Assembly: GCA_951799445.1 (NCBI GenBank)
Contig: OX637291.1
Span: forward strand, 312,501-376,500
Length of the DNA: 64,000 nt
Origin: Pseudisothecium myosuroides
Lineage: Eukaryota > Streptophyta > Bryopsida > Hypnales > Lembophyllaceae
Direction: 5' to 3'
A model generated the notes under the pieces. The model was not told the DNA's origin, did not search any database, and saw only the letters and a program-made list of their open reading frames with translations. A program made the position numbers and the translations under genes. This document shows positions 7,797 to 57,330 of this stretch, in pieces. Numbering within the stretch: position 1 is the stretch's first letter; the number at the start of each line of letters is the position of its first letter.

Positions 7797-7817
7797 TTCA
7801 CCTTGAATGGAGGTGAA
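7797..7817. repeat. Single intronic copy of the TTCACCT/AGGTGAA palindrome
   Basis: TTCACCTT, 5 nt, GAGGTGAA lies in the intron between exons 2 and 3, 26 nt beyond the donor. It is the same core as the arrays at 11.0-12.3 and 23.5-24.9 kb, but single. Confidence 0.8.
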
Positions 7818-7842
7818 TACTTAGAAAGAACAACATACTCAC

Positions 7843-9207
7843 CCATGCCGCACAGATGATTTTTCCACCCCCGTATATGGTAAAGACCGCATCTCCAGGA
7901 TTGCAAAATAAAGCCAAAATGCTTATGTAGAATTCCATCCGTAGTTCATTCTCATAGATTCGATACTGCATTTCATTGTAAGCTCCCGAGGTAAGGAATT
8001 CATGCGTTTCCGGAGCCTTGAATTTTGTTGGCAAGGAGTTGCATTTTGCCTTGTGGTTCTTCTTAATGAGGAACATGATGTGGACGTTCGCTTCGACTTT
8101 CTTCTTGTTCAACTCAAGATCTTCAAGTCGCTCGTACTTCGCCGGCATGTACTCTGCGTGATGAAGGACATAATTATCTGTAAATACAGAATTGTAAAAA
8201 TGGTGTATGAGACTGGAGTCGGTCTTCTTATCTCCAGATAACCACACCCACACAGGGATATCAAGAATTGCAGGATCAGTTAGCCGCATCAGCAACATCA
8301 AAAAAGAATAAAAATACGGAGTTGCCATCCCTCCAGCCTCCTTCTTGTTGCTTGGAAAAATTCTGAAGTCCATGAATCCCATCTTTATACGGTCGACATC
8401 CAAATGATCCCAATCACCTCTGGCCCACTTCGCTAAGTCGTCTGTATTTTCGTTGAATGGACGGTAGAATGCTTGACCGGTGGGAACTGTAAACCTTCCT
8501 TTATTTCTCAAGAAGACCTTCAGAAATTCCTCGGCATAGGGTGACAATTCTCGAATGCTCTTGTTGATGTTACACAAAAGCTTCGATGCAGTGAAGAATA
8601 TCTCAGATGGACCTGTGATGAGGACATGCATGGCAGCGTCCGTGATCTTGTAATCCTTTTTGAATTTCTTCCACATGTCCTTCTTAGTCTCTCCCGTCGT
8701 GGTTAACAAATCAAGTTCGGGCTTCATATCATTGAGCTGCACCTTTACAATTTGTTTTCTTTTGCGCCTCTCACACCACTGTCGATAAGTACAACAGTTT
8801 GGTACAACCTTCTTCAGCTTCTTAAATGTCACCTTTGGATAATCCTCCATTCTCTTGTTCTTCTTCTCTGGTGGGTTAGGCTTCATCAATAGATGCTCTG
8901 CAAGTCGCTTGAGGCTTGCGTTGGAAAGGTTGCCAAGCCATTTGAAGAACTCTTTACTGATGATGCCATCCTTCTCCGGAACCCAACCCTTGTTGTTCTT
9001 GAACAATGTTCTTGACTCCGGATCGATCAACTCTCCCATTGAGGCAGCGGAAATGAGTTCAGAGTATAACTCATATACATCTGTTGGAGCAGTAATAATT
9101 TTGAGCTCGTTTATAATGTCAACCTTCACGGGCTTGCCAGACTTGGTTCTTTGCTGCTTCTTAATGTCAATCATACCAAACCGTAGCTGGCAAGCAGCGT
9201 CAAATTT
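7843..9207 (-). CDS. Exon 2: degenerate N4/N6 DNA methyltransferase-like region
   Basis: Follows acceptor TGTAG and reads KFDAACQLRFGMIDIKK..., 455 codons with no stop. Near its end is LFCNPGDAVFTIYGGGKII followed by CAAW. This resembles methyltransferase motif I as it occurs late in circularly permuted N4/N6 methylases (PGD-x-V-x-D-x-F-x-G-S-G, then AA). About 240 residues earlier, VLITGPSEIF sits where motif IV (DPPY) would be expected, so the catalytic motif looks lost. A Lys-rich segment (KKNKRMEDYPKVTFKKLKK) could bind nucleic acid. The assignment rests on motif shape and on the adjacent ParB-like domain; an unrelated fold is possible. Confidence 0.45.
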
Positions 9208-9252
9208 CTACACTCAAAGATAATGTAAACAGGTTAGTCACTGAATAGAAAA

Positions 9253-9273
9253 TTCACCTTGGATGGAGGTGAA
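9253..9273. repeat. Second intronic copy of the same palindrome
   Basis: TTCACCTT, 5 nt, GAGGTGAA lies in the intron between exons 1 and 2. The same core occurring in two introns of one gene, and nowhere in its exons that I can see, argues against chance. Confidence 0.8.
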
Positions 9274-9389
9274 TTATGAACTAGAAAATTGCATTCTGCA
9301 AGCTTCAAGAATAGACTGATGACCTCCTAACTTATATGTATTAGAAAGAATTTAGTTGAATAATATAAAACTACTTCCTTATGACATAC

Positions 9390-10829
9390 CTTCCAATTTT
9401 CGGCATTGTTGCCCTTGGATTGTGACTTTGTTCTTGAAACTGATCGTCCCACTTCGGACGCTTGTTTTGGAGGTGTTGGTTCTCCCATCCTTACCCACAC
9501 TCCACGAGCACCAATTATATTAGTTGCCCAGGTAGGTGTATATCTGTCGAAGTGATTCACTCGATTATAATAAGATGAAATTCGTCGTAGAATGGAGTGG
9601 TCCTTGCTCCAGACAATGAAGCATGGCCATTTTTCAAACTTCTCCACGATCTTGGATGCAGATGCCTCGGTCCTCATCTTCTTTGATGCCTCGACACTGT
9701 GCTGGCCATTGATCATGTAGAACTTGCAATCTTGTATGTCTTTCCAATCCTTTGGCATTTCCTCCAAGCCGATAGGCATAGCACAAAGGGCCTGCTTCCT
9801 ATCTTTGTCAGGCATCTCCAACAAATAATGCATGGTGTGGTCGATGCCGGACGGCTCTAGACTGCGGCAGTTCATGTCAGGGAGAGGTACCATCAACTGA
9901 TCAATTGAAATCTCTTCAACTTTATCACTACCAAAACAATATGCTTCTTGGCATTCAGACCAATAACTATCATAGATCTTCAAGGACTCCTCGTAATTCG
10001 CTTTCCCAGAGTCTTTATCCTTGGGTATAAACTTGAAATCCTTTGGTATGTTTGTAAGGACTGAGAGTGAGCTAGACTCGGGATCTTCATCATTGGCTTC
10101 AGCTGTTGTAGTGTCCCACGTCCTCATTGGTGTGCTAGCACGCACCGTTCTTGAAGTACTAGGTCGACGTTTTTTATTTTCACTTCTACCTGTCTCAGGG
10201 GTGAGATTTAGGCGGGACTGCTAGCTCCCGACCACGCCACTTGACTCTCGAGACAAATGTTGAGGGGTCATGTTCTTGTGACTAGTCCTTAATGTTGTTG
10301 TCTCAATTTGAAAAGAGACTAATAGCTGCTTCAGTCGAGTTGCCAGAATTGCTGAAGGTAGCGGTCCTCCATCCTTACTCATCCACCTTCCTTTCTGGAT
10401 TTGTGTTTCCAGCTCCTTATAGAGGCCTTCGTACTGGGTGTTCATAAGAGACGTACAACATTCATGAATACTGAATGGCGTCTCTTGAGGATTGATGGCA
10501 TAAGTGTACTTGTATTCCTCTGGCATGTCTGGGTCGTTCTTGATCAGGCACGTGATCAAAAGCATTCCTGGAGGACCCTTGGCAATATCAACAACTTCTT
10601 CATAGTGAGAAATTGGAAGTGTGGCGTCAGGCCCATTTTTGAATTTCTTTATGAACCCAACGTTTTGCGTCATTGGATAAAGAATGATGCTCCAGAACTC
10701 AACGCTCTCTGGCTCTTTTAGTTTCCAATAATCCCCATTGTCGGCCTCTTCGCCAAATTCTTCGACCAAGTCTTCGGGTACTTCATATTGATTGAAGTAC
10801 AAGTCTAGTTTCTTTTTGTGTTCGTCCAT
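9390..10829 (-). pseudogene. Exon 1: N-terminal region with ParB/DGQ-like domain
   Basis: Starts at MDEHKKKLDLY (10829), just downstream of a repeat array. Residues about 310-385 follow the ParB/sulfiredoxin N-domain plan: a beta strand EISIDQL, an Arg-containing strand, a helical stretch, then KFYMINGQHSVEASKKM. That last part resembles the family's hydrophobic-DGxHR-xxA box, with NGQHS in place of DGQHR. ParB-type domains bind or hydrolyse CTP or cut DNA, and in phages they are often fused to DNA methyltransferases; activity here is not predictable. TAG at 10221-10223 (residue about 203) breaks a frame that is open on both sides. The exon ends at AAG|GTATGT. Confidence 0.5.
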
Positions 10830-11019: not shown

Positions 11020-12262
11020 TACAAGCTATTCACCTCGAGTCAAGGTGATTTTATTTATGGATACTACTTGTACAAGAAAGGCAAGCGGCCGTTGATTCAC
11101 CTCCACTCGAGGTGATTTGAGTCCGGAAACTACTTCTACAAGAAGACAAAGCGTCTTCTGATTCACCTCGAATCAAGGTGAATTGAGTTTTGGATACTAC
11201 TTCTATAAGAAGACAAAGCGGCCTTCAATTCACCTCCACTCGAGGTGATTTAAGTATAGTATACTACTTCTACAAGAAGACAAAGCGGCTTTTGATTCAA
11301 CTCGAATCATGGTGAATTGAGTTTGGGATACTACTTTGACAAGAAGACCAGGCGGCCATTGATTCACCTCGAATCAAGGTGATTTGAGTTTGGCGTTCTA
11401 ATTCTACAAGAAGACAATGAGTCCATTTATTGATTCACCTCCACTCAAGGTGATTTGAGCTTGGGATACTACTTTTATAAGAATACCAAGCGGGCTTCGA
11501 TTCACCTCCATTCAAGGTGAATTGTATTTGGGATACTACTTCTACCAGAAGACAAAATTGCCTTTGATTCACCTCGAATCAAGGTGAATTGAATTTGAGA
11601 TACTACTTTGACAAGAAGACCAAGCGGCCATTGATTCACCTCCACTCAAGGTGATTTGAGCTTGGGATACTACTTTTATAAGAAGACCAAGCGGCCTTTG
11701 ATTCACCTCCATTCAAGGTGAATTGTATTTGGGATACTACTTCTACCAGAAGACAAAGTTGCCTTTGATTCACCTCGAATCAAGGTGAATTGAGTTTGAG
11801 ATACTACTTTGACAAGAAGACCAAGCGGCCATTGATTCACCTCGAATCAAGGTGATTTGAGTTTGGCGTTCTAATTCTACAAGACAATGCGTCCATTGTT
11901 TGATTCACCTCCACTCATGGTGATTTGAGCTTGGGATACTACTTTTATAAGAAGACAAAGCGGTCTTTGATTCACCTCAACTCAAGGTGAAATGTATTTG
12001 GGATACTACTTCTACCAGAAGACAGAGTTGCCTTTGATTCACCTCGAATCAAGGTGAATTGAGTTTGGGATACTACTTCCACAAGAAGACAAAGCGGCCA
12101 CTGATTGATTCACCTCGACTCAAGGTGAATTTTGTACTTCTACAAGAAGACAAAGTGGCCATTCATTCACCTCCACTCAAGGTGAATTGAGTTTGGAATA
12201 CTAATTCTAGAAGAATACAAAGTGGCCTTTGATTCACCTCGAATCAAGGTGATTTGAGTTTG
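11020..12262. repeat. Palindrome-cored tandem array 1, about 19 units of 60-70 bp
   Basis: Each unit has a core of the form TTCACCTC-GAATC-AAGGTGAA/T followed by a conserved spacer like gagtttgggatactacttctacaagaagacaaagcggcc. Cores are near 11025, 11095, 11161, 11229, 11297 and onward to 12234. The array starts about 200 bp upstream of the minus-strand gene beginning at 10829. Its core matches array 2 at 23.5 kb while the spacer sequence is unrelated, so the core, not the spacer, is what the two arrays share. Confidence 0.9.
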
Positions 12263-12889
12263 GAATACTTGTTCTAGATATAGACCAGAAGAAGGAGAAA
12301 AATCATTTTATGTAAGGGAAAGACTAACATCCATTAAAATAGCTCACCTCTAACTTCACAAATGAATGTATATAGCCAAAATGCCACGGAAGTCTTCTAG
12401 AAATTTGGATGTCGTACACGCTGCAAACAATCAAACCACATGTTGAAGTGAGATTGACATTCCTCAAAAAATAGTGACACTTCCACAATGTTATGATGGT
12501 TATAGCCGCAAGAACTTAAAGAATTGGAAACTCAAAAGCTAATAATTAGAACTACTCATTGGAACCTAATTTTGAACTCTTGTTTTAAAATTGCTCATTT
12601 GAACTCTGGCTAAGGAGCTCACAAAGAAATAACGATGACTCAACAGCCTGTAAAGGTCACAATTAATCAACAATGAATCAAAGATGACTACAAAGCTCAC
12701 AAAGAATCAACCATGACTGCAAAGGCAACATCGTATACTCACGGTCCTAAACCCTTAAATGTTCACAACGATTCTCTCAAAATTCATAAAGCGCCTCAGG
12801 AATCATTCAAAATGCATACTGAGTTCAAAGTTCAGAAACATGTCAAAGAACGAGCTTCCTCCAGCTCGAAATTCATGAACATCCTGATT
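12263..12889. other. Noncoding stretch after array 1
   Basis: No gene or repeat that I can support. It is AT-rich, with loosely repeated phrases of the form aaagctcacaaagaatcaa at 12610-12720. Confidence 0.5.
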
Positions 12890-13085: not shown

Positions 13086-13099
13086 ATCCTCGATCATTT

Positions 13100-16335: not shown

Positions 16336-16336
16336 A

Positions 16337-22255: not shown

Positions 22256-23511
22256 AGTTGTGCTGCGGCGCTTGCTACGAGCTTCATATCGTGTTGAGGT
22301 TGCGGTCGAAGGAGTCAGGCAATTTCTATTGAGGTATGACGTATCCCTTTGATTTGAATTTGATACTCTTTGTATTGTGCAATATGCTCTGTCTTTTCTC
22401 TTGCTTGTGTGGACTCCATGGAAACATCGTCACATCATTCAACCTGTCAATGGTTGTGATTTTGGTTCGTAATCGAGATGTAACGCTGCTAGTTATCTTC
22501 AATTCAGTGCAAGTGTAGAAAAGCTATGTCCAATTCTTGGATTTCTAGTTCTGATTTTTTTTTTCTTCGGTGATTCTCAACTGATGCGGCTTTAGGATTT
22601 AGGCGTTCGCATCGTTATTGTAGTATAGTAGTGCCATCTGAGATAGAAGAGGTAATAGTAAAGGTACAGATTCTGCTCACATCCCTTTGAGAATGTTTTG
22701 TGGAGACAACATTTCTGAATTGAAGTCCTTCAACTTATAATTTAGTATGTAGAAGGTGAATTTCACTGTGCTGATCGTTGTTGTAGTGATGACAAAGTTT
22801 AGTGAATTAGAAAACCCTAAATCTTAAAAAGTAGGATCGAAAATAGAATTGTATTGCATGCACTGAGTTGTTCAATTGAAGACCATTCGTCTTTCGGATT
22901 ATTGAATTGCAGTCCAGAATGTGTGAGGCAATTGACCACAGATGTAGCTTGAATAGCGGAAATTGTGCAATCGTAATGGACAATTTTGTGTTCGATTGTA
23001 TTTCCTGCAACAGTTTGGTCGCAATTGTTGTCACTTGTACTTGTTCAAATGATTTTGTATAAAGGGAGATTTTAAGAGATTGACCGATTTTTTCGAACTT
23101 GTGTGTACATTGCTCTATTATTAACTCTGAAGATTACGCCGAGGAGTTCAAGGAGGCATGCGTCTACATTGGAATTGATGGTTTCAAATGTTTTATTGAC
23201 TGATAATTGCAAGGAAAATTGCACCCCATTATGATTCCTGTTATTAGTGTAGTTGTTTGTATTGGATCTTGTTAGTAAGTGACAGCAGGTTGTAGCACCT
23301 CCCACAGTGAAGGGTGTACATTGCAAGTGGTGTAGTTGTAATTCTTCATTTGAATGGAATTTGCTACGAACAATATGAATTCATAGTCGACCTGAATGTA
23401 CTACTTTATATTCTGATTGGAAAACAAGATGAGAAGAGGTTTTCAAAGTCCATAAATGAGATAGAGTGGAATTATTTAATCACAAATTGGTTATCTAAGA
23501 ATAGGTCAATT

Positions 23512-40575: not shown

Positions 40576-40802
40576 TGTCGCAGTGTGAATTTTTGATTTT
40601 TTGTAAGTTATCTAAATCTTGGAACGAAAACCGTGATCCGGGATCCGGATTCGAGCAGGAGCTAACGGATAACCGGAAATTAACTACGGAACGGAATAGG
40701 TGACAATCCGGATTCGATCTGAATCTAAACCGGATTAGAGTTGGAGCGGATCTGAGTTGGAACGGATTGGGTCAGGAACGGATTTAGTCATGATGACAGA
40801 TC

Positions 40803-40815
40803 AGATTATAAATAG
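40803..40815 (+). promoter_or_regulatory. TATA box of LTR3
   Basis: gattataaatagg lies about 280 nt upstream of the LTR3 ORF start when LTR2 is excluded. LTR1, LTR2 and LTR4 have the weaker TACTTAAA 150-160 nt upstream of their ORFs. Confidence 0.55.
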
Positions 40816-41047
40816 GCTGACCAATCCAGTTGCCACTCTTTTTAAAACTTCGTTTGCGGAAATCGCTCTCCAGCTTGTACTTAGCTTCCCTTTCAGCGCT
40901 TTGCTTTCTTGTTTTGTGTGTGTGTGCGTATTAGTGTGTTAGAGCGCGCAGCGCTTTAGCGTGTGCTGCAGGTTTAGAGGTATTCCGGTTGAGATCGGAA
41001 GAGCGAAGGTGAGAAACGGGACGTGCGGCTAGGAGAGAGAGAGGTAG

Positions 41048-44000
41048 TGTGGGAGTACGTATCATCCGGAAAGTCCCAATTAGCAATTTAGTGGAGATAA
41101 AAGTAGCAGAACTTTTTCAATTTTTGCATTTAAATACCAAGTTAGGACTTAGATATTAGAAATAGAAATTAGTTTCTAGGTAGAAAGGATAAAACTCTAA
41201 ATAGGTTACGCAGCCTGCCGGAAACCGTAGCCGGAAAGCCGGAAAGTTCCGGAAAGTTCCGGATCGTAGGGACCTACCGCCTAGGTTCCGGCTAGGGAAC
41301 TTACGGGAACGTTTTTGGCGGCGGGAACTTAGGGTTCCGACAGGTACTTAAACCCCACCGCCAGCCTCATTCAATCTCTTTTACCCGTGTTCTTCCACGG
41401 TGCGTTAGAAGAGAGAAAGAGTGGTGAGTTAGGGCGTGTTAGGGAGAGAAAGGGAGGAAGGTGCCGATTGCACCGGATTGTCCTAGCAGTCGGTGAGATG
41501 GCGGAAGCGAGTCGATCCCGGAGGTCGGTAGTGACAGCCCGGGGCGTACGTCCGGTTGTCCCATCGGATCCGGAGCGCCTGAAGGAGTTAGAAGAGGACC
41601 TAGAAATCATGGGGTGTTTAGGATTGGTAAAACGTCCATGGAACGTCCGGAGCGAAGAGATGATTGACGAGCTGGTTTCCGGAGTAGGTAATCAGTTCGA
41701 TTTGACGATTAGAGGTCGATCTAGGGCCTGGACTCCGGAGTTGTGGGCGAAGGCATACTTTACGCCAAGCAGGGGTTCCGGAATGGCGTCCCGGACGGAC
41801 ACTTACGCCGTGGAGGTATTTCGGAGTCATGCGAATTCCAAGGAAGGGAACGCCGCGAGTGACTGTAAGAGTCCACGGGATGGGCAGTTGTTAGCATTCC
41901 TCATCCCTATCTTGTATCCGGAAAAGCCCACCCGGATTACAATGACCGTGGCAAACACTATTTTCGGAGCGCTGGGAGACAGAGAGAATCCGGTTCCCAG
42001 GCCAGTCAGTTGGGGAGTGATCATTCACTCCGTAGTGGAAAAGTTAGCGGTCAATATCGCGAACAAGAAGTCAAGTCCGATTAGCCCCTATCTTTTCCAT
42101 TTGTATCACTCCGAGGATGCACTGACCGGACCGGAAATGACAATGTACCGGAAGGGCGAGAATTTGTTGAAGTACGGACTTCCCGCGGAAGATGAACTGG
42201 ATGAGCTCGAGCCGGAAGAAGAGGAACCGGAACCGGAGCAGGCATCACCTAACGTTGGAGGGACGCGCCGTAAATCAACTGATCAGGGTGCGCGGGGGAA
42301 GCAAGAAGCCGAGGAGGTGGAGAAGCCTCGAGAATCACTTCCGGAAACGGATCAACTAGACGCCACCATCAAATGGCTGTTGGCTACCCGGGCACAGAAT
42401 GAGCGGATGTCGGCGCTGATCCGGGAGATGTGCGAGAAATTGGGTGTGAAGGAAGAAACCCAAATCCTGGTGGCGTTGACAGAAAGGCCAGATCCGGAAG
42501 CAGTGAAGCAACTGGAAGACCGGATTCTGACCTTGGAGCAAGAACGGGACCGGTTCCGAGAACAAGCTGCGTGGTTGGAGAAAGAACGGATGGCTGCTGA
42601 AGCAAAGGAGGGAGAAGCCCTCGATCTGGTCCGGAATGTCAGAAGTCTGTTTGACAATCCGGCGGATATTCTTGCCAGAGCTACACTCTGGAATTCTCAG
42701 ATGGTGAAGGATGGTCACGTGGCCGGAACGAAGGTGGTGAGCATCCTCGTAGATTTTGAAGTCCGGATTGAAGGAATGCTCAAGGAAGTCCGGCAACTGT
42801 TGGGAAACTTGGATCCGCTTGAGGGGTTAGACCAAGGCCTTTTTGACCTAGGTCATGATCTCCAAGAAGGAGGGGCACAGAACCAGCCTTCTCCGGCAAA
42901 GAGCAAGACAATCGCCGGAACGTCGCAAGCCGGAACAGCATCGGCACAGAAGAGGAGGTCGCTGGTGAAGCAGTTTGCGGCCTCGACTCCGGTAAAAGAC
43001 GTTGTCCTAGGCATTCCAGCCGGAAGAACTGCGTCGGTGGCGAATCTCTTCCCCGACAGACCGGTTTCTTCTACGTTCCGGGAACCAGCTGTACCCGGAA
43101 CGGTGTTGAACCCAGCCCGGACGGATCCGGTGAGTTTCACTCACATGCTCTAGCCCCTTTTCCAGACACCGCCACCGTCCCAGCTCATCGATCTTACTGT
43201 TCCGAAACGAAGGGGGCGACGGCTACTGAGCGAGAAGGACCCGAAATCGGAAGAGGAGGAGGAGACGACTCAATCGGAGGAGGAAGAGTTGCAGCCTCCC
43301 CGGACCAGGTCGAAGACAAAGAACACCCCACCCCAGAAGACAGGTGGATCGCCATCTCAGGGTGGCACTTCTGTAAAGAAGGCTAAGAGAAATAGGTGAC
43401 TATCTAGGGTAGCCGTAATAATAGTTAGGATTCTTACCAAGATGGTAGTTCCGGAACCGGATTTTCCGGATGTGGGTCCATTAGTTCCGGACTTTTAGGA
43501 GTTAAACGGTTTTGCAGTTTTCCCGGAACGGTCTTCAGGGCCGTTGCCTTTTTGCTTTCTGTTTGGCCGTTGGCCGGTTTTTCTGGTGGCCGTTTGGGCT
43601 GCCTTTTTGTGGGTTTTTAAGGGCAGGCCGGCTTGTTGGCCTGTCATTCCTTTTCCTTGTTCATTTAATCTGAAGCATTCAGGAAAGCACTCGTTGGATT
43701 ATTCTCTTGCGTATCGCGTCTATAGTCACTTGTGTGGATGTGTAAGTGAGAGTGTGCAAGGGGAAGAGTCCGGATTCTTGGACTGCCGGATTAGGCTGAG
43801 TGTGTTTTACGGATGAGTTTTTAGACTTGCGTAGTGAGAAAGTGGCGCCTTTAAATCGCTGGTACGGTAATCCGGTGGAGACCAAGGAGTGGTCCGGAAG
43901 CTAGTCCGGAATTCGCAGGGGCGGCTCCGTGCGGAGATAGGCAACCGCCAGAGGAATATTTCCACCCATCCGAAAGGCTAGTCAACCTCATGAGCGGTCG

Positions 44001-44491
44001 AGAGCTAGGAAGTCATTCCCTTAGTTCCGGAAGTCCGGTATCCGTCGTTGTAGTAAGGAGGACCTAACGCTACCCTGTGTGACCAACTTTCCGGATAGGC
44101 CATCCGGGATATTGTGAGGATGCCACCCTGTTTACTCGACTAGATCTATTCTTGGGTTGTGTTTTGTTTTATGTTTATGTCAGATACGGAGTGGTGCAGT
44201 TCCCTACCCCTCGGAAAGAGCAAGTGAGGAACCCTCTGAGGGTAAAACAGAGGTATCGAAAACCAACTTGTTAGAAAGACGGAACCGGAAGAGAATCCAA
44301 AAAGGAAGTAGTTCCGGAAAAGAGTTCATGTATTAAAAGGACCCCTCTCGAGGTGGTCAAAGTCCGGAAACTTAGAAGTCTCGAAACTCTAATTTTGAAG
44401 CAACGTCTGGAATCTCCTGGGACGATAACTTGTGTCATCTTAGCACGTTTTTGTTGTTAAAGATACTTACGACTAGATTACGCGTACGACA
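41048..44491 (+). mobile_element. LTR2: 3,444-bp solo giant LTR, target duplication GGTAG
   Basis: Runs TGTGGGAGTACGTATCATCC ... CGCGTACGACA, flanked by GGTAG at 41043-41047 and 44492-44496. Near-identical to LTR1 by eye over its full length, but inverted, so 35661-39140 and 41048-44491 form a large inverted repeat with a 1.9-kb centre. It inserted about 35 nt upstream of the start codon of the LTR3 ORF, separating that ORF from its TATA box. Confidence 0.92.
41498..43399 (+). pseudogene. LTR-encoded ORF of LTR2 (633 codons, one stop)
   Basis: Starts MAEASRSRRSVVTARGVRP. An earlier in-frame ATG at 41387 lies in the probable leader and is not shared with LTR4. Residues about 45-200 form a conserved domain with MIDELVSGVGNQFDLTIRG, TMTVANTIFGAL, VSWGVIIHSVVEKL and SPISPYLFHLYHS. 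A Glu/Pro-rich linker follows, then a coiled coil at about 335-385 (QLEDRILTLEQERDRFREQ), GTKVVSILVDFEVRIEGMLK, and NPARTDPVSFTHML. TAG at 43151-43153 replaces the CAG Gln seen in LTR1; the frame then stays open to 43399. The N-terminal domain recalls the 'putative plant transposon protein' (Transposase_32) family, from memory and unverified. Confidence 0.75.
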
Positions 44492-44531
44492 GGTAGCCTC
44501 AGTGAGAATCCGGTTAGCACAGCTCGTGTCC

Positions 44532-46298
44532 ATGCCTGAGCTCCGCAAGAGTAGAGCAGGACCATCCAGTTCCTCTGCAGTAGAAGTTAAACTCCGGAAG
44601 GTGTGTCCGATTATTCCAGCAGAAGAGAAGGAAAAGGACAACCTCATAGAGGATCTTACCAAGATGGGTTGCGGAGGACTGATCGATAAACCCTGGGGGT
44701 TTAGGGAGGAACGAATGATTCGAGAGCTGTTGGGAAAACTCTCGAATCAGTTCGACAAGACCATCCGCGGAATTCCGGGCAGTTGGACGGAAGAGATGTG
44801 GAGGTCCGTGTACGATTTCCGGTTAGGAGGTCGAGGGATGGCCACCTCGAAGGAAGGTTACACCCGAGGGAAGTTCCGGACCATGGTGGACTCGAAGGAT
44901 GGGCATGCGGTCGCGGATTGTTTGGACGACCGGCATCGAAACCTTCTGCAGTTCCTGGTTCCGATCATCCACCTGGAGAAGCCGACGAGGGTGACAATTG
45001 CCATCGGGAACCTGATTTTTGGAGCCCTGAGCGGGGAACGGAAAGTGGACTGGGCCAGGATCTTTTCCGATCTGGTCAACCGTCTGGTTCCAAAGATCGG
45101 AGGAAGTAGGCCGACTCCGTTGAGTCCCTACATCTTCCATCTTTACAAGCATAACCAACTCCTCACGGATACGGAGGAGAAGGAGTGGAAGACTCATGAG
45201 TCACTCCTGAAGTATGGGGAATCGGAATCGGAAGAAGAGCAGGAGGAAGTATCCAGTTCCGATGAAGAAGAAGAAGAAGAGGAGGAGCAACACCGGTCGC
45301 AGCACAAGCGGCAGAAGACGACGCCTCCTCACCGAAGAGGAACCCCAACCCCTCCGGTTGAGACCTCCAACCTTGGGAAGAAACCGGTTTCTGAAGAACC
45401 AGGTCCTTCCGGATCGGATCCGACGGATCCGTTCAACCAGCTGATCAACATCTTGAGCGATGTGCGAGCAGACTGGACAGTGAAGAAGCTGATTCTGAAC
45501 CAGATCAGCGAGCTGGTGGGAGCACCAGCGGATAGCAACCTCGCAGGAGTGGTTGCAGAATTCATCTCCAACCCGAATGAGATCCGGAAGCAAGAAGCGG
45601 AGATCCGACGACTCCAAGAGGAGAATGAGTCGTTGAAGACGGAATTGTTGCTCCTCAAGGAGGACATGGCCACCACACGGGAGATGGCAGAGGCTACCCG
45701 GAAAGTAGCTGAGGACGTGAAGGCCACTTTTGGGACAACCGGAGAGGCCGTCATCAAGTCAAAGCTGTTTGACGAGGGAGTCCTCAAGGACAAGAAGATA
45801 TCCGGAACCAGGTTGGTCCGGATCTTGACGGACTACTCCGAGAAAGTGGAATTGGTGATGATGGAAGCGCGAGAAGCTGCAAACCGGATGGAGGAGAGCA
45901 GCAGAAAGCTGAATGGAGTGACGTTGTCAAGGTCGTTCCATCTGTCCGACCTTTCAATGCCCGGGTCTTTTTTGAACGTGGGCATTCAGACGGAAGGAAA
46001 GGAGGGGACTCCCCAGTCAAAGAAGAGTGGGAGGAAGCTCGCGCACACCATCAACTTGGATTCGTCACCTGATCTCCCAGAACGTGAAACCGGGGAGTGG
46101 AACTGGAATCTGACGGACGTCTTCGAACAGCTTGGAGCGGAAAATCCCAGGAGTCCCACACTGAACCAGGGACAGGATCAAAGTATGGATCTAACCCCAG
46201 ATTAGGGTGCGGATCAAGATCAGAGCGTGGACCAAGGCAAAGACCAAGTTATGAACGAAGGAACGGATCAAGGAGTAGATCCGGTTATGATAGGATAG
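44532..46298 (+). pseudogene. LTR-encoded ORF of LTR3 (557 codons to a late stop; about 588 with tail)
   Basis: Starts MPELRKSRAGPSSSSAVE at 44532; the longer upstream frame begins inside LTR2 and is rejected. Conserved blocks are MIRELLGKLSNQFDKTIRG, TIAIGNLIFGAL, VDWARIFSDLVNRLV and PLSPYIFHLYKHNQ. An acidic run follows, then a coiled coil (IRRLQEENESLKTELLLLKE) and GTRLVRILTDYSEKVELVM. TAG at 46203-46205 falls inside a Q-D-rich tail that continues open to TAG at 46296-46298 (GADQDQSVDQGKDQ), so it is likely a CAG to TAG change. The NPART-FTHM motif of the other subfamilies is absent. It is strongly diverged from LTR2 but keeps domain order. Confidence 0.72.
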
Positions 46299-47499
46299 GT
46301 AGGATTAGTTTTGTAAATATTTGTTAGTTAGGACCGGACCGGATTTGATCCGGTGTGTCTGGTCTGGATCGGATGTTTTCCAGTCTGGCCGGCTCGGCAG
46401 GGACCGAAAGTTCCGCGCGGACTTTCCGGGCCACTTTTTTGTTGACTTTTGAGTTTTAAAGTGTATATTAGTCAGTCTCTGCGAAGGAGATTGGGAGTCT
46501 TTTCTCTTGAGTTTTTGTGTATTTTCTATTGATTTCTTGTTGTACGTCTCTCCCGCGCGTGGCAGGGCTGTTTTGGTGAAGAGTCAGGAAAATGTGTGCA
46601 GATTCTAGAGAGATTTCTCCCCTTAGTGTGTTTGTTTTGCTCTTATGTGCATGTGAGTGGGTATTCTAAGTGTTGGGAGTGGATTTCAGTTCCTCAGCAC
46701 CTCTACAGTTCACGGTTCCGGGCGAGAAAACCGTTGTTAGGCTAGGCGGATAGGGAAGGAATCCTTAGTCGCGCTAGAGCTCTGGGATAGGAAATCCGGT
46801 TGAGTGTCCGATCTCCCGTGAGGTCTCGCTGCCCTAGTTGGTAAACGGAAGGACTTTAGTTGATGTTGGAACGGACGGGTTCGCTTGTAACCACCTAACT
46901 TTGCATGGAGGGAACTTGGCATCAAGGTCGTTGTAGTATGAGAGGATTGTACGGGGGGTCTTTGTGTGATCTGCAAACCGGATCGCTGTCCGGGTGGCTG
47001 TGAGAGATCAAACCGGATCCGCGCTAGTGTAGGAAGTAGTGGATTAAAGAAGTGGGTCTTTAGCCACTATAAGTCACGGAAGGAGTGGCGAGCCTGCCAC
47101 TCTCAAAAGCAAGCGGCGAACCCTCTGATGGTGAAACAGAGGCTAAACTAAACCGGAGTGGAGTGAGAGTACGTGTGAGAGGACCGGATCGGATCGGTCC
47201 AGAGGAGTTCCAGGATCTGAAGTTGAAGGATCCTGGGTTGTGGAAGCTTTACATGACCGAATAGCTTGACAGGCCGGAAGAGATAGAGAGAGGTCTGGTC
47301 GTTGTTTTCGGTGTGTTGTTATTTCCGGTTTTAGATCTAGGACCGGAAAGTAGAAATTGGATACTGGCTGAGCTTAAGTTGGGAATAGAGCTAGACACTT
47401 CACAGAATCTCGTGGGTTCGATCTTTAGAGTCATTTTGTTATGCTTTAGAGTGGTTTTTGGGAGTATAACAGGGAATTCACTTACTCTGTGCTGCGACA

Positions 47500-48508
47500 T
47501 GCTCAAACCACTAGAAGAAATTGGCGACAAGTTTAGTTCTGCATTGGCTTCACTGATTAATGGCAGCTGGTTACTCCAAAAGAATGCCGACGACAAAATC
47601 ATTGCAGGGACTTTCTCTCCCAATGCTAGCGTCCTTGTCTTGTGTGGCATTTAGTTAGCATCTAGCACAATAATAGTTTTCAGTGTGGCAGTAGCCTGCA
47701 AGGTTTGCATCCTTGGTTTTCTTGACCCCAGATTTCCATTTCCCTCCGATTTCTTCCCATTTTTGGACATTTCCTTGTATCTGTAAAACATAGCCTTAGA
47801 AATCCCGTGAATGGTCCACCATGCAACGGGGCACACGTTTCTACCTTTTAGGGTAATCCACTCCTTGCCGGAAGGGTCTTTGTGGATCTGACCATGCACA
47901 TCCAAAAGACACCTCTTTCGATTATATACTCCATCGTTTACATGGAGTTGAGTTCGGAGAGCCTGGATTTACCCACGCGGAAATGGCTGCAAGCAATTAC
48001 TCTCGCAACATGTTTTGGTGGAAACTTGATTGATTGCTTCAACAGTGAGAAGGGACTCTTTTTTAGGAGGGAGATCAGGCTCCACCCTCTCACGAGTGGT
48101 TTCATAAGACCGAACCCCTTTACAAACCCTTCAAGTAAGGGCATTGACGGCCATGTTGTAAATGTTTGTCTGGTCATGGTCATACAAACAGACACCGTCG
48201 AGAAATACTTGTTTTATGTGCCAAGAATGGATTGACCACATCCACGCGCACGGAACTTCCTCCTCACGCAACGACTCCGCAATTTGGACAGCCACTCGGT
48301 CGTCACCGAGAGGTGTCCCATCCATGTCCACAACAAGACTTGGATCAACATTTTGACAGACTCCATTTACAACATCAAGTCCCGCTTTGTTTCGTAGCGT
48401 GACAGCCCGAGGATGCTATTTCGCGCTAGGAATCTCGTCGCACTCGGCGATTCCAACAGGTAATACAAGCACAAGGTTAACGAACTCTTCAGGTCTGTGG
48501 ACATCCAT
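47500..48508 (-). pseudogene. DUF7869 copy B, N-terminal part
   Basis: Starts MDVHRPEEFVNLVLVLPVG at 48508. It aligns with copy A through GVCQNVDPSLVVDMDGTPLG, the zinc-type site TCCESNCLQPFPRG, KGRNVCPVAWWTIHGISKAM, KPRMQTLQATATLK and MPHKTRTLALGEKV. In-frame stops are TAG 48416-48418 (Trp in copy A), TGA 48131-48133, TAA 47969-47971 and TAA 47651-47653. With LTR1 and LTR3 removed, the three parts of copy B total 2,859 nt (953 codons) against 2,841 nt for copy A, so there is no net frameshift. Palindromes of the TATCCTCGA type start right upstream of the start codon. Confidence 0.85.
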
Positions 48509-48534: not shown

Positions 48535-49895
48535 AATACATATCCTCGACTCCACGAAAAAATGTGGCAACCAAAACTATTACAATAGCATGTTACTAAC
48601 CTGCATACTTAGAATTCAAACAGAGTTATGCCCTCTATGAAATCAAAGTAAACTAAATCATTGAACTATTGACTACAATTTTATACAAAACTATGACAAA
48701 ATATCTATTAAACATATTCCTGACGTAATTCATTGTGAAAAAAATTAGTGAACTTCACCTCGGCATTCCTATCCTCGAAGCAACGATGTTCACAAATTAA
48801 ACAGAACTACATGATTAGAACTAAACAATAACAACATTATAAACAGTCCAGAGGCTATCTTATTTCTAGAATTTAGACCTTTCTCTTGACGAATAGCTCA
48901 TTATTCTGATTGGTCACCGTCAGATCTATGTATACTTATGTGATCCTATAAATTGAAAATGTGTCCTCGACTCGAGGATAGAGGTTCTATAATTCTTTTC
49001 TAACATTCTGAAGTACCCTATTAAAGGGATTATATCATATATAAATTACCAAAATATTATACTGAAATATGACAAAATCTCTATGAACAAGTTTTCCATA
49101 TAATTGACACTCAAAAGTCAAAACTAGTATCAATAACTTCACTACAGAACTCCGATCCTCGAATCGACGATACCATATAATTGAAAAACTTTATTCAATT
49201 AATAATTATACAATACCAATATTATATACAGTCCAGGATGTAAACTACCTGACACTGTGAACGTAGTTCCCTATCCAAAAAATTGTATTGAAATATGATA
49301 GAATATTAAAGGTTTTTGGTCAAGCAATTTACAAGAAAAAGATAGTATCAATTACACCACCACAACATTCCGATCCTCGAATTGACAATGCCTTCAAATT
49401 GAGAATCATTATACAATTAATTATTATACAAGACCAACCTTATATATAGTCCAGGAAGTGAACAATCTGACTTCTTGTCCTCAGAACCCTATATAAGTCT
49501 GTAGTGAACTATTGAATAGGGTCAATTCAAGCCGTATCCTCGACTCGGGGATAGAGAATCTATGCATTTTATCATCTAGAAGACCTCGTCAAATACATAA
49601 AAGTTTCATAAAATCCTCAAAATTATAGGTTGTTTAATTCTTATAATAAGATAAAACATATTATCGTCGACTCGAGGATATTTCTCAGTATACATCTAAA
49701 TATGTAAACGTTTATTGTTGAGTCAAGGATAGACTTTAATAGTCATTACTAATTATAATTATCTCCTATATATCCTTGAGTCGACGATAATCACAAAACA
49801 TTATAGATTCAAGAGTTATCGTCGACTCGAGGATACATTGACGGGAATAAATATCTCTATAGTCTATCCTTATCGTCAACACAAGGATGTACCTT
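48535..49895. repeat. Dispersed palindromes of the TATCCTCGACTCGAGGATA family upstream of copy B
   Basis: About ten copies lie in 1.35 kb of otherwise AT-rich DNA. Examples are tcctcgactcgaggata (48963-48980), gatcctcgaatcgacgata (about 49150), tatcctcgactcggggata (about 49537), tatcgtcgactcgaggata (about 49663), tatccttgagtcgacgata (about 49769), tatcgtcgactcgaggata (about 49814) and a partial copy next to the start codon (about 48540). They are spaced irregularly, not in tandem. The core differs from the copy A and copy C families. Confidence 0.85.
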
Positions 49896-50559
49896 TCATC
49901 AAATATGCGGTATATAAAATATAACTCTCGTAAATCTCAACGTAAATATCGGAAACTGCGTACTTCAACGTTACGGAAGTCAGACTGAGGTAGAACATCC
50001 CCTTGTACAACATTAATCAATGAGGATCCTATATTTCACTATTCTTTTTAGCAAAAAAACACGACCCTTGAAGACAATAGAGGGCATCAGACGTCCAAAA
50101 ACACATGCAGAACTATATGCGTAACCTAGTCAATACAAAAAATATGTTATGTCTACAAAGAATAGTCTCCAGCAACTATGGCAAGTGTGCGCACCTGTTG
50201 TGGTTACTCTCTTCACTCTCGGCAAGTCTGCAGCACAGGCAGAAAAAATTTGCGGGAAAAAGTTGGCGAAGCAATCATCGGGAACTCTACAAAAACATCT
50301 GAAAGGCGACGAGAAGAAGTGACGTTGCTGCAGAGGAGAAGCAAGGGGACATCCGGCTTGAAGGGGACGAGGAGACACAACGGACCTGTTGGAGGAAGAA
50401 AGGCGGGAAAATATGGGCGCGGAATTCCAAAAATTCGAATTCGCTCCGAATCTACGAGTTATTCACAATCTACTTTCTTTGACATTGCTTTATTCCCACT
50501 TTTGGGACCACTTTCTGTCAGATTTAGGCCATGCAAAATGCGGCTCCATATAGGGTTGG
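49896..50559. other. Noncoding stretch right of the copy B flank
   Basis: No supported gene. ORFs on both strands around 50100-50450 have no recognisable product. Confidence 0.4.
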
Positions 50560-52889: not shown

Positions 52890-52975
52890 GATGTAGAATG
52901 CGTCGTGCGATATCACGATGGCAGTTGCGCCCCGCAGAATGCATTGTGACATCTCACGATTGCCGCGACGACCGA
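52890..52975. repeat. Copy C-type palindromes downstream of copy C
   Basis: cgtcgtgcgatatcacgatgg and gtgacatctcacgattgcc, variants of ATCGTGGGATCCCACGAT, about 60-140 bp beyond the 3' end of copy C. Confidence 0.65.
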
Positions 52976-53031
52976 CACAGTGCGTCAGGAGTTCCCACAA
53001 TGGCAGTAGCAACCCCGGACTAGGCAATCAA

Positions 53032-56000
53032 TCATGGGTCCACCACGTTTGCCCGATTCAAATTCACTAAGGACGCCTCCCTATTCTTCTGAGGAATCAT
53101 CCGTGATTTTTGATCCACTCTCCTGGACCAATTCGCATACACTACAGCACCCGCATCCACCCAGGTGGGGGGACTTTTTTCAACGACCCATTTACCGTAC
53201 CAGCAATTCCGATAATTCAATTCCAGCCTCGTTTCGGAGTTATCGGGTCGCTAGTACTAAAGCAAGAACTTCCCGTTATTCACATCTCCTTCCACTCTGC
53301 ATACAATAGACAATGCTCTTCCCTGCCAAACAGCACATGATTCCGGGACTTCCGGTCTGACAAGTACCCAACAGCTTGGTCGTATGTCTAGCCATGGATT
53401 AAAGCTTTCCCTTGGCGCTTCATTTGCAGGGTCGCAGTAAGGCTCCGGCTCCTCTTCTTCCTCCGGAATCACGTCCATGGGATTCACCGTCGATCTTGGG
53501 CGAGGGACTCCATTACGCGCCACCCTCCAATCGTGTTGTGGCCAGAAGCCTTCCACCAACTCCGGAGGACACTCGGGTAATGGTTCCTTCAGCTCATCGA
53601 GAACACACTTCCAGTAATCCACGTATAGACCGAACGCAGTTGCAAATCCCTCGCATCTAAAAATACCGTATTGCCAGTACTGAATGTATTTCTTGAGTCC
53701 TACCAGCATGAAACCCTTGTTCAAGGTAGCTTTCCGCGCCGCATCCCTTGTCTTCTCTTGATTTCCATTCAATATCGGAACCTCGCTACCCCACATGGGC
53801 TTAAACAGAACAAGCTTTGGACAGCCGTGAGGGAGCATGGGCCGACCATTGTTGTCTGTCTTCCAAATGCGTTCAGAAGGTTTCTTCGATGGCAACCAGT
53901 TCGAATCAACTGCTGACCTTTTGAAGTTCATGACGGGGACCCCATCAGTGTCCACGTAGAACTTGAACAGGTGCATCTCCCCCAATCCAATTAATTTTTC
54001 CCCGCGATTGCATTGGTAACCCTCCACGAACGACTTGAAATCCCCCACCTCCTGTATGAACTCCGGAATAAATGACAGTTCTAGGGACTGCATGAAGGCT
54101 TTCATGAGGTCAGCGACGACAAAAGTGTTCTTGGTCTTCAGGGCCTTGGAAAGGTGGCTGAAATATGCATCGATGTCCTCGTGAGTGTATCCGATTAGTA
54201 GAAACCCAACCTGAATTTCCTTGAAGACACCTTGTGCAGTGAGCAAGGATAAGAATGCCATTAGATATTTGTTCTTGTTATCCTTGGCAGAGTTGTCAAG
54301 CTGAAGATATAAATTTTCAGGAAGAGGGGTACTTCCGACCCGAGCTCCAGGTTCGGTGAGGGTTAGGCTGTCCATACATCTAGACTTTCCTCTAAGCAGT
54401 GCCTCGAACAAGGAGTTAGCCGGCGGATATGGAAAGAGGTCGCCTGCCTCTCGAATAGGTGGACCCTCCAGCCGGCGCAACAACCTCGCCAAAGACGAAA
54501 TGGTGAAGTTGGAGTCCGCCGGCCAGCAAGATGGAGCATAATGGGTGTAAGCACCGTCACCATGGCCATGAGCTACCATTCCAGTAACGCTCATCGGAAG
54601 CTGCCCCAGACCGGCTGTGGCCTTTGTTGTCACTCGGAGTTTGGGTAGAGCCGTCTTGGATGTATCCATCTTGTCGTGAATTATACATAAAATTCTTCGA
54701 GGATCTCGTTTGGATTCCTCACGCCAAGACGCATACAAACGACGGCAAGAAGCTTGGTGATTGAGATGATGAGTCCGCTGCTTCACGAACTCCACGTACT
54801 CGGGGCTTCCTTTCGGAGACTTCAGAATAAACTGCTGTAGGTCGTCGCACTTAGTACATTTTGCAAACAAACTTTCGACAGGCTTAATGGAGACGTTGTT
54901 GAAGTGCTCCCGCTTGAGTCTACTAATAGTCGATTGGCTCACGGGCGGCAGACCGTAGTCAGCATTCAACTGCACATCCAGAATTGGTACGCTTAAGCAT
55001 CGGTACGAGCGAAGGGGAAGGAATGCAAATGACAAGCAATGCACCAGAACAGTGATCGTGATATCTCACGATCATTGATCTCGTCGGGAGATCTCACGAT
55101 CAATAAAGCAGTGATAGGAGATAAGGGGCACTACCTCGTTGGCGTCTGCTTAGACTCGTTTCCAATTTCTTCCGGGAGGAAGGAATTTTAGAGTGTCCGT
55201 TCGCCCGTTCCCGATGCCGCGCATTTGGTGGGGCATTTGATCAGCATTCTCGTCAATAATGGCTTTTATAGTCCCAGCGACCTGAACAATCCGAGCCCGC
55301 GGGCGCTTAACCCCTTTGTTTCCGTGCGTCCCTGATACGACGTCGTCGTTGTACATCTCAATGTAACTGTGGTAAGTGGACTTCAGGATGCCGTGAATTA
55401 TGTACCACGCCTTGCCACAAACATCAACTCCCTCTAGCGTGACGTATTTCCGCTTCCGCTCCCCGTACCTTTCGTGTAGTTGTCCTCCCACTCCAATCCC
55501 ATATTCACGGCGCTCGTCAAACGACTTCAAGTAGTACTTCTGCCTTACTAACAGCGTGAACTCCTGGTTATAATGCTGACAACACAGACGTCTGCAGCAC
55601 TTCTCCGAGCTAACTTTCCGAATCTCCTCGTCTGCCATTTTGCGGGAGTACTGCGATTCCTTCAGTTCCAGATTGGGTTTGCGAACTATAAACCGGTATG
55701 GTGCTTTCATTCTACCTCCGAGGTAAGCGAGAGGGTCGTCCATATCGGGAATGGCGGCAAAATGATCCACTGTCTCCTTCAACGAACGACCGTTGGGAAA
55801 CCAGCACTCCGAAATTGGCCACCTGTCGTGAGACATTATGGCTTCGGTGTCACCCACAAAAACATCGAGGACTGTCACACCTATGAAACCTTCACCAAGT
55901 GTCTCCTCTTGGAAATGATCCTCCGGACTCCAACAAATGATACGACCTGAGGAAACAAGGAGTCCGTCGGCATCCTTCCGATGCACATCAAGTCCAAACC

Positions 56001-56436
56001 AGGCTCCTTGACGATTATACGAACATGGATCCATCAGGGGATCCGTCGACGCTCTAACAACGTCGGCGGCTCTCCACAACACTACATTCTCTTGAACATC
56101 CTCTAATGTGTTCATACCCCTCTGACAAGGAAAGCATTTCAAATCCTGGAATTCTAATTTGATAGAATGAGGTCACACCAGAATGTAAATCCAAGGCTCA
56201 ACAGGTATGGGCACACCCAGCCACTGGCCCTGGGGACGAACCTCTTTAACGATTCTTGATCCAACTTCACCGAATCCAGGCACAAACAGCTTAACCCAAT
56301 CACCATTCACAAACGCTTCACATCCACCGGTGGAATCCTGTGATTCACCCTCTACATGCGTTCCGTCCACATACGGAACTATCGCGTTGGCAGCAGACTC
56401 ACAGAATGAATCCATTGTCAGAGTGAGCTCTATCAA
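53032..56436 (-). pseudogene. DUF7869 copy C, diverged, with one intron and three stops
   Basis: Starts near MIELTLTMDSFCESAAN (56436). The first exon runs to about 55150 and the second from about 54990 to 53032; the exact splice sites are unresolved. Motifs are CCRRLCCQHYNQEF (zinc-type), VTLEGVDVCGKAWYIIHGIL, CTKCDDLQQF, IIHDKMDTSKTALP, VTGMVAHGHGDG, LQLDNSAKDNKNKY and LIGYTHEDIDAYFSHLS (GYTH in place of GHTH). The C-terminal module has a Trp-rich end (CWYGKW). In-frame stops are TGA 56173-56175, TAG 53257-53259 and TAG 53251-53253, with no frameshift. It is much diverged from copies A and B, and its intron and flanks carry its own palindrome family. Confidence 0.82.
55050..55106. repeat. 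Intronic palindrome cluster of copy C
   Basis: gtgatcgtgatatctcacgatc followed by gatctcgtcgggagatctca and cgatc, inside the intron between the two copy C exons. This parallels the intronic palindromes of the gene at 4262-10829. Confidence 0.8.
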
Positions 56437-56574
56437 ATCCCTTGGACGAGATTAAAACGATCTGTAAAACCTGTACATCATACATTCAAGGAGTTAGGCA
56501 TGTCTACAGAAGAGCGCTGCATTCATGGCATTATAACCTCACAACATGAAGGACAGAAGCATCAACGTCTGTAC

Positions 56575-57330
56575 ATTCGTGGGAACTCACGATCACATGG
56601 CAACACAACATGAATAAGTGAATCTAGTTATTGTCAACAAGAAGTTCGAAAGCCCAGACGCGATAGTGCGATCTCACGAGGGCCGTTCCAGAACCACTGG
56701 GAAGAAGCCAAGGCATCCAGGAAAACGTCGCAGAAGTTTAGAAGACATTAACCAAAGAACATTCAGTACATCGTCGGATCCCACAACACTCTTGGCGTTG
56801 AATCATTTAAACCAGAGATCGCAGTATTCCAAGATCCTCCTAAGGGATCACATAGACCGCTACAGAAATACAAATGAAGTAGTGGGTCAAACTGAATCAC
56901 TCTGACGAGTCCCCGACATATTATCAATCAATCGTGGGATCCCACGAGTTCGGTATCATGTAAATTCCGGAAGAGTGTTTGTGAACCCCCCCGAGTAGGA
57001 GAACTTGGTGCCAACCGAAAATGTGATCGTGAGATCCCACGATGCTTATACAAGATCGACAAGGAGTATGACGGTCATCAAAAAGTAAGGCACCTAGACG
57101 TACACCAGGAAGGCCACAGCCAAGGTTCAATCGATCGTGGGATCCCACGACGAAATGATAGAACATCCCTCGACTACCAGACCGCGATATCTCTATACTC
57201 AAAGACTGAGAGGTCTCGCCCACGCTCAATAAGCAAAGATCGTGGGATCCCACGATGCTTACGTATGTTGGATATATACATGTATTCTACTATCGTAGAC
57301 TAACGTATCTACAAAAGATCGTGAAATTAG
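56575..57330. repeat. ATCGTGGGATCCCACGAT palindromes upstream of copy C
   Basis: About seven copies: 56577 (cgtgggaactcacga), 56663 (atagtgcgatctcacga), 56931 (atcgtgggatcccacga), 57025 (atcgtgagatcccacgat), 57133 (atcgtgggatcccacga), 57239 (atcgtgggatcccacgat, perfect) and a half site at 57319. They are spaced about 100 bp apart. The core is an 18-bp perfect palindrome. Confidence 0.88.

What the first reader, a model, noticed from the sequence alone, without database searches (positions are those of the whole stretch)
7797..57330. Each DUF7869 gene lineage is paired with its own palindrome family
Three DUF7869 copies have three different palindromic repeats: TTCACCTC-5 nt-GAGGTGAA around copy A (25330), TATCCTCGACTCGAGGATA around copy B (48508), and ATCGTGGGATCCCACGAT around copy C (56436). 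In each case the repeats crowd the 5' flank; in copy C and in copy A's divergent neighbour they also sit in introns. The simplest reading is that a dimeric element-encoded protein binds them, and that protein and site diverged together. They could act as subterminal transposase sites, self-regulatory sites or anti-silencing sites.
Basis: partly seen in the sequence, partly recalled or inferred. Interest (0 to 1): 0.88.

Follow-up and report, generated by a model that had tools for sequence, protein, structure and literature searches.

The report
Moss transposons with lineage-specific palindromic addresses
In a moss genome, a large group of jumping genes each carries clusters of its own short mirror-symmetric DNA motif in front of its genes, and these motifs change along with the element's protein, as if each family had a private address that only its own protein can read.

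Summary
The window lies in a moss-like 388 Mb assembly. Copy A is the right-hand gene of a complete DNA transposon (window 3594-29061, 23/26 bp terminal inverted repeat, 4-bp target-site duplications). Of 32 further DUF7869 loci fetched without regard to palindromes, 23 carry a recurrent palindrome family in the 5' flank; six lack a readable 5' end, and three from a remote lineage have none. A contaminant contig (56% identical protein) also has its own family. In the 23 loci, sites number 287 in 44 kb of 5' flank and 1 in 44 kb of gene. Palindrome families follow protein clades (Mantel r 0.79, nine representatives). Six of the nine share a 10-1-10 bp layout with core TCGA-n-TCGA and lineage-specific arms. 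In ten loci with dispersed sites, sites stay 77-90% alike in unrelated surroundings.

In four whole A elements every site found lies in two promoter-proximal arrays and two introns, at least 4 kb inside the ends, so the sites are probably not the transposase's end sites. Most likely they bind an element-encoded dimer that controls or un-silences the element's own genes, as VANC does in VANDAL elements. Which protein binds, and with what effect, is not shown.

The parts
3590..3593 (.). left 4-bp target-site duplication ACAC
   Evidence: matches ACAC at 29062-29065; copies R1, R2 and R4 have CTAA, TATA and AGTA
3594..3619 (+). left terminal inverted repeat of the copy A element
   Evidence: homology of R1, R2 and R4 starts exactly here; 23 of 26 identical to the right end reversed (counted)
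5114..5932 (-). ORF with FCP1/NIF phosphatase domain (PF03031), possibly the 3' part of gene D
   Evidence: Pfam E 1.7e-15; PF03031 listed in 9 of 16 D homologues in Ceratodon (also 39); 94.6-99.6% identical in three other copies
6929..10829 (-). gene D (divergent neighbour), 3 exons modelled, one in-frame stop left in the model
   Evidence: splice model; homologue KC19_3G000200 numbered next to the A homologue KC19_3G000300 in Ceratodon
7797..7817 (.). A-type palindrome in second modelled intron of D
   Evidence: same place in R1, R2 and R4
9253..9273 (.). A-type palindrome in first modelled intron of D
11028..12276 (.). 67-bp tandem array of A-type palindromes in front of D
   Evidence: best recurrent family n=19, shuffle maximum 1
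23496..25041 (.). 60-bp tandem array plus outlying A-type palindromes in front of copy A
   Evidence: n=25, shuffle maximum 2
25330..28170 (+). copy A: intact 946-aa DUF7869 protein, putative RNase H-fold transposase
   Evidence: Pfam E 5.9e-41; model and fold comparison
29036..29061 (-). right terminal inverted repeat of the copy A element
   Evidence: homology of four other copies ends here
29062..29065 (.). right target-site duplication ACAC
35278..48508 (-). copy B: broken DUF7869 gene in three pieces, interrupted by inserts
   Evidence: tblastn pieces; inserts include 35660-39140 and 41048-44492, 94% identical and inverted
48541..49900 (.). B palindromes TATCCTCGA-n-TCGAGGATA in the 5' flank
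   Evidence: n=10, shuffle maximum 1
53257..56415 (-). copy C DUF7869 gene, 31% identical to A
52903..52959 (.). two C-type palindromes 3' of copy C
55055..55100 (.). two C-type palindromes in a C intron; both also in the C-like copy L040, which is 96% identical there
56576..57256 (.). seven C palindromes of the type ATCGTGGGATCCCACGAT in the 5' flank

Best explanation
The window holds three lineages of one group of DNA transposons whose likely transposase is the DUF7869 protein. Each lineage carries clusters of a two-fold symmetric 20-21 bp site (10-bp half-sites, 1 or 0 bp between them) in front of its genes and, in A and C, in introns. SHOWN: the sites are non-random, almost absent from coding DNA, lineage-specific, and track the protein tree; six of nine families share a TCGA-n-TCGA core with lineage-specific arms; in the A element the sites are promoter-proximal or intronic and internal. 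INFERRED: a dimeric protein encoded by the element (the divergent gene D product or the DUF7869 protein itself) binds them and raises or un-silences transcription of the element's own genes. Protein and site change together, so each lineage acts only on itself, as VANC proteins do for VANDAL elements.
For: Of 32 loci picked from the Pfam list without looking for palindromes, 23 have a recurrent family (5-21 sites; maximum 1-2 in 40 shuffles at the same site length). Contaminant contig L001 shows its own family: 3 sites in 603 bp, at most 1 in 2000 shuffles, none in the coding sequence. 287 sites in 44.2 kb of flank vs 1 in 44.0 kb of gene part in the 23 loci. Mantel r 0.89 over 31 loci (p 0.0001), 0.79 over 9 representatives (p 0.0002), 0.70 over 6 odd-centred representatives (p 0.014). 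Sites are 77-90% alike but their 25-bp surroundings 30-38% in ten loci with dispersed sites. The bases beside the dyad are kept in A-type (38/41 and 40/41) and B-type sites (17/17 and 16/17), which favours a double-stranded site over an RNA loop. In four whole A elements the 41-53 sites per element (<=4 mismatches) all lie in two promoter arrays and two introns. VANC21 sites are likewise mainly non-coding, often tandem and fast-changing (PMC5735166; outline, abstract and two results sections read).
Against: No binding, expression or methylation data. The correlation cannot by itself separate co-evolution from joint inheritance of gene and flank. Three remote loci (L014, L015, L025, about 23% identity) had none in 2.1-2.6 kb, so the system is not universal for DUF7869. 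The bases beside the dyad are less kept in TTTAAC (10/19, 12/19) and TTATCT sites (48/64, 43/64). The ends of A differ from other lineages' ends about as much as the half-sites do. Gene D was seen only in A elements; the whole-genome search for D did not complete, and the stretch beside C is too short to exclude it. A repressor role fits the anatomy equally well. TATCC and TATCT forms are intermixed on the tree.
Confidence: 0.58

Rival explanations
1. The palindromes are internal binding sites by which the DUF7869 transposase assembles the transposition complex.
For: Each lineage that has them encodes a DUF7869 protein; the model has an RNase H-like core and a helical region before it. In the three pairs that involve A, ends and half-sites differ to a like degree (15/21 vs 7/10, 13/21 vs 6/10, 9/21 vs 5/10). 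Transposases with internal sites exist (recalled: Ac/Ds, Spm).
Against: In four A elements no site lies within 4 kb of an end; arrays sit in front of both genes and single sites in introns. In the three pairs without A the ends are more alike than the half-sites (19/21 vs 6/10, 17/21 vs 4/10, 15/21 vs 5/10).
Confidence: 0.14
2. The sites bind an element-encoded repressor that limits copy number (autoregulation), not an activator or anti-silencer.
For: Promoter-proximal arrays and dyad symmetry are equally typical of repressor operators (recalled).
Against: Intron sites and the density and turnover of the arrays (17-34 sites before DUF7869, 17-22 before D, per copy) resemble VANC targets more (PMC5735166), but this is analogy only.
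Confidence: 0.2
3. A host transcription factor or host silencing factor reads the palindromes; elements copied different host sites.
For: None direct; promoter position is compatible.
Against: Seven or eight site families in this genome, and a further one in L001, follow the element's own protein tree. On the one contig listed in full, A-type sites occur only beside A-type genes (32 of 32).
Confidence: 0.05
4. Neutral by-product: tandem-repeat growth of DNA that happened to be palindromic, diverging passively with the element.
For: A and D arrays are true tandem repeats, and vertical inheritance alone gives a correlation with the protein tree.
Against: In ten loci sites are dispersed in unrelated surroundings yet stay 77-90% alike; families stay symmetric while their arms differ; near-absence from coding sequence.
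Confidence: 0.03

Closest known systems
VANDAL / VANC sequence-specific anti-silencing (Arabidopsis; PMC5735166, PMC10398659)
   Same: Multi-gene plant DNA transposon; motifs in non-coding parts (upstream regions and introns), often in tandem arrays, different between related lineages; an accessory gene that changes faster than the transposase (here D 42% over 75% of the query vs DUF7869 73% over 98% to Ceratodon).
   Different: Likely transposase is DUF7869; 4-bp duplications; motif is a 20-21 bp two-fold palindrome with a core shared by six of nine families, not a 9-bp motif; D shows no VANC domain in Pfam. Binding and demethylation are untested.
Sola2 superfamily
   Same: DNA transposon with short terminal inverted repeats and 4-bp duplications, large transposase (PMC3627910, passages read). 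The paper's AT-rich duplications are compatible: 12 of 16 duplicated bases here are A or T.
   Different: No Sola2 protein sequence was compared here, so the link is a lead only.
En/Spm TnpA and Ac transposase sites (recalled)
   Same: Element-encoded protein binding repeated motifs near its own promoter; TnpA is also said to relieve methylation.
   Different: Those sites are subterminal; in the A element here they are at least 4 kb inside the ends.

Membership tests
DUF7869 (PF25273) | domain match above Pfam cut-off | tested here: met
   A 140.6, B piece 123.2, C 142.8 bits, cut-off 26
TIR DNA transposon | fixed ends shared by copies, inverted terminal repeats, target-site duplication | tested here: met
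   A element: ends identical in copies, 23/26 bp repeat, four different 4-bp duplications. For three other lineages only the right end was seen
DDE/D RNase H-fold transposase | RNase H-like fold with three acidic residues in order | tested here: inconclusive
VANC-type anti-silencing system | lineage-specific motifs in non-coding parts of the element | tested here: met
VANC-type anti-silencing system | protein binds the motifs | not testable with these tools
   needs gel shift or ChIP/DAP-seq
VANC-type anti-silencing system | protein causes loss of DNA methylation | not testable with these tools
   needs methylome data
VANC-type anti-silencing system | VANC protein homology (DUF1985) | tested here: not met
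   no such Pfam match in D or in four of the 16 Ceratodon homologues
Sola2 | 4-bp target-site duplication | tested here: met
   A element only, four copies
Sola2 | homology to Sola2 transposase | not tested
   no reference sequence at hand

The most novel reading that the evidence does not exclude
A whole moss transposon superfamily runs a set of mutually orthogonal, element-encoded address systems: a dimeric protein reads a modular palindrome (constant TCGA-n-TCGA core plus lineage-specific arms, CpG inside the core) in promoters and introns, and recruits an element-borne CTD-phosphatase-like (FCP1/NIF) module to switch the element's own genes on. This would be an anti-silencing or self-activation mechanism that arose independently of VANC.
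Probability: 0.35. Interest if true: 0.9.

Novelty: new variant of a known kind. Interest (0 to 1): 0.76.

Why it matters
If true, one genome offers seven or eight protein/site pairs of graded relatedness (a ninth lies in the contaminant contig). That would make the evolution of DNA-binding specificity, and of transposon self-recognition, directly testable in a haploid plant. It would also show that sequence-specific self-regulation by transposons, known in detail from Arabidopsis VANDALs, arose in an unrelated transposon group and land-plant lineage, and it would give a function to a so far nameless protein domain.

Tried and rejected
Rejected or weakened: (1) RNA hairpins: the pair next to the dyad, which a hairpin could not form, is kept in A- and B-type sites, though only partly in TTTAAC and TTATCT sites. 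(2) Passive tandem duplication as the whole cause. (3) Subterminal transposase sites for the A element. The comparison of ends between lineages is mixed: ends more alike than half-sites in the three pairs without A, not in the three pairs with A. (4) B as a private family; it belongs to a broad TATCY clade.

Led nowhere: AlphaFold model of the D homologue P0106 (mean pLDDT 32, 16 sequences). Foldseek on A gave no match with E<=0.001. PDB sequence search with profiles of D (0 hits) and A (3 weak, unrelated). NCBIfam gave only weak, below-cut-off matches. DUF7869 scan of viral contigs found nothing; of genome contigs, 1 locus of 16 candidate stretches (L001). The ParB-like (NGQHxxxA) and methyltransferase-like (GGGK) reading of D is recalled pattern-matching; the only support is a DUF6551 hit at E 0.06, below cut-off. 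Literature: no paper in the held library has 'DUF7869'. A search on moss/DNA transposon/palindrome terms listed 8 of 20 papers, none describing this by title and abstract start; one on transposon/FCP1/bryophyte terms found 0. Of the papers found, and of most in 19 and 102, I saw listings only.

Limits: the 32 loci were hand-picked for variety from the listed best-scoring places (153 matches, 150 of 1224 first-look candidates scored), not a random sample. The rule for a readable 5' end (gene aligned to A or C from residue 50 or earlier) was set after seeing the results; the six left out by it are L029, L031, L035, L036, L038 and L040, all without a recurrent family. In the far lineage (L014, L015, L025) alignment to A starts at residue 134-150 and the gene start is uncertain. 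Motif counts use motifs found in the same loci; the de novo test against shuffles is. R1-R4 were chosen by palindromes and are not part of the 32.

Full report
WHAT IS THERE. The window (contig C5:312501-376500 of a 388 Mb assembly) is from a moss or near relative: the listed relatives of copy A that bear a species name are from Ceratodon and Physcomitrium. All three palindrome families reported are present and far above shuffles. Copy A (25330-28170) is intact. B is a broken copy in three pieces. C is 31% identical to A.

THE ELEMENT AROUND COPY A. Four other places with exact A palindromes were fetched (R1-R4). All four have an A-type DUF7869 gene (94-99% identical) directly beside the array; R1's is interrupted and R1's and R2's carry stops. 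Alignment of these copies to the window ends at the same base on the right (29061) in four of four and on the left (3594) in the three of three whose left side was fetched. The ends are inverted repeats (23 of 26 bp). The flanks show 4-bp duplications, different in each copy: ACAC (window), CTAA, TATA, AGTA. The element is thus a 23.9-26.3 kb DNA transposon (25.5 kb in the window). It carries, on the left, gene D and an FCP1/NIF phosphatase frame on the minus strand and, on the right, DUF7869 on the plus strand. D's nearest relative found is KC19_3G000200 of Ceratodon, numbered next to KC19_3G000300, the nearest Ceratodon relative of A; 9 of the 16 D relatives found are listed with the FCP1 domain. 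D relates at 42% and A at 73% to this Ceratodon pair, so D changes faster.

WHERE THE SITES LIE. In four whole A elements (window, R1, R2, R4) the 41-53 sites per element (<=4 mismatches) all lie in the array before D, the array before DUF7869, and one in each of two modelled D introns. The D array begins 7.0-7.4 kb from the left end and the other array ends 4.0-4.5 kb from the right end; the intron sites are 4.2-5.7 kb from the left end. The number of array sites differs between copies (17-22 before D, 17-34 before DUF7869).

BLIND TEST IN THE GENOME. A Pfam search gave 153 DUF7869 matches from 150 scored of 1224 first-look candidates. I took 32 places chosen for varied scores and frame lengths, without looking for palindromes. 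A de novo search for recurrent palindromes in the 5' flank found a family in 23 of 32, with 5-21 sites each against maxima of 1-2 in 40 shuffles at the same site length. The other nine: six have no readable 5' end by a rule set afterwards (L029, L031, L035, L036, L038, L040), and three belong to a remote lineage (L014, L015, L025; about 23% identity) with none. Counting with each locus's own motif in the 23, there are 287 sites in 44.2 kb of flank and 1 in 44.0 kb of gene part. A contig misfiled in a cyanobacterial bin (L001), 56% identical in protein, has its own family: three sites in 603 bp of flank, none in the coding sequence, and weaker ones behind the gene.

ONE DESIGN, MANY ARMS. Half-sites read outward-in, majority base: A TTCACCTCcA; TTTAACTCGA (L020, L021, L023, L024, L043); TTCAAgTCGa (L045); TTTAGCTCGA (L001); TTATCCTCGA (B, L033, L034); TTATCTTCGA (eight loci and L037; L018, L041, L042 end in g). 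These are joined by one central base, giving a common TCGA-n-TCGA core, loosened in A and in L018, L041, L042. Two further clades have no central base: TTCAGaGcGG and TTCaGACCGC (L019, L039; L044), and C (gATCGTGGGA). In the protein tree the A, TTTAAC and TTCAG groups are clades (support 0.94-0.999). The TATCC/TATCT loci form one clade (0.988), mixed among themselves and joined only by two copies without a readable flank (L029, L035). Distances between half-sites follow protein distances: r 0.89 for 31 loci, 0.79 for nine representatives, 0.70 for the six odd-centred ones. No clade carries the family of another; weak cross-matches occur among near relatives (such as L001 and the TTTAAC loci) and one C-like match in L030.

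WHY SELECTION AND NOT DRIFT. In ten loci with dispersed sites (B, C, L001, L018, L020, L022, L033, L037, L044, L045) the sites are 77-90% alike while the 25 bp on either side are at 30-38%, i.e. unrelated; in the tandem families A and L026 surroundings are at 61% and 41%. Families stay symmetric although their arms differ. The bases next to the dyad are kept in A-type (38/41, 40/41) and B-type sites (17/17, 16/17) and less so in TTTAAC (10/19, 12/19) and TTATCT sites (48/64, 43/64). This favours a double-stranded site bound by a dimer over an RNA hairpin, without closing the question for the last two.

PROBABLY NOT THE TRANSPOSASE'S END SITES. Position is the main argument: no site within 4 kb of an end. 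Right ends of three more lineages were located where pairs of copies stop matching...TTTTAATGAATATGATGTT...TTTTAATGAATATGACCTT and ...TTTTAACGAAATTGACCAT, beside ...AAAATATTGAATATAGTGTT in A. Over 21 bp the three non-A ends share 15-19 bases while their half-sites share 4-6 of 10; A shares 9-15 of 21 with them and 5-7 of 10 of the half-site. So the ends point the same way only for the pairs without A.

MECHANISM. Most likely an element-encoded dimer reads the sites to control, most likely to free, its own two genes. The closest precedent is VANC: motifs in non-coding regions, arrays in upstream regions and introns, rapid divergence between relatives (PMC5735166: outline, abstract and two results sections read; PMC10398659: abstract and outline only). 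The system works like VANC by anatomy. It is not a member: D has no VANC domain by Pfam, and binding and demethylation are untested. Activation versus repression, and D versus DUF7869 as the binder, remain open.

Noticed in passing
5' flanks of C and of the TATCY-clade loci L018, L022, L026, L037: Spacing between sites is often about 53-54 or 105-108 bp, near 5 and 10 helical turns; the A arrays use 60 and 67 bp.
   Followed up: no
palindrome cores, odd-centred families: The core holds a CpG in each half (TCGA-n-TCGA); in A-type sites one of the two is often lost (position 9 G in 13 of 41, position 13 C in 25 of 41). Possible methylation sensitivity.
   Followed up: partly
L001 (CADCWO010000071.1): Contig filed under a Synechococcales MAG encodes a moss-type DUF7869 gene: probable moss contamination of that bin.
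   Followed up: partly
5114-5932 and Ceratodon P0107-P0121: Transposon-borne FCP1/NIF phosphatase domain beside or fused to gene D; 11 of the 16 D homologues have UG or VG in their locus names, which I read, from recall, as the sex chromosomes.
   Followed up: partly
59069-59229: About 160-bp inverted repeat (84%), fold-back or MITE-like.
   Followed up: no
35660-39140 and 41048-44492: Two 94% identical gag-like retroelement copies in opposite orientation, both inside copy B.
   Followed up: no
29018-29047: Imperfect hairpin TTTTGAGAG...CTCTCTCAAAA just inside the right end of the A element.
   Followed up: no
32586-33805 and 62778-64000: 1.2 kb direct repeat, 89% identical, with 94-bp tandem units at 62.6-63.0 kb.
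   Followed up: no
gene D, 10221-10223: In-frame stop in the D model. R4 and R2 also have one stop in the corresponding aligned piece, R1 none in its aligned pieces, although the window's exact letters there occur in none of the three. A short unmodelled intron or an old nonsense change; not resolved.
   Followed up: partly
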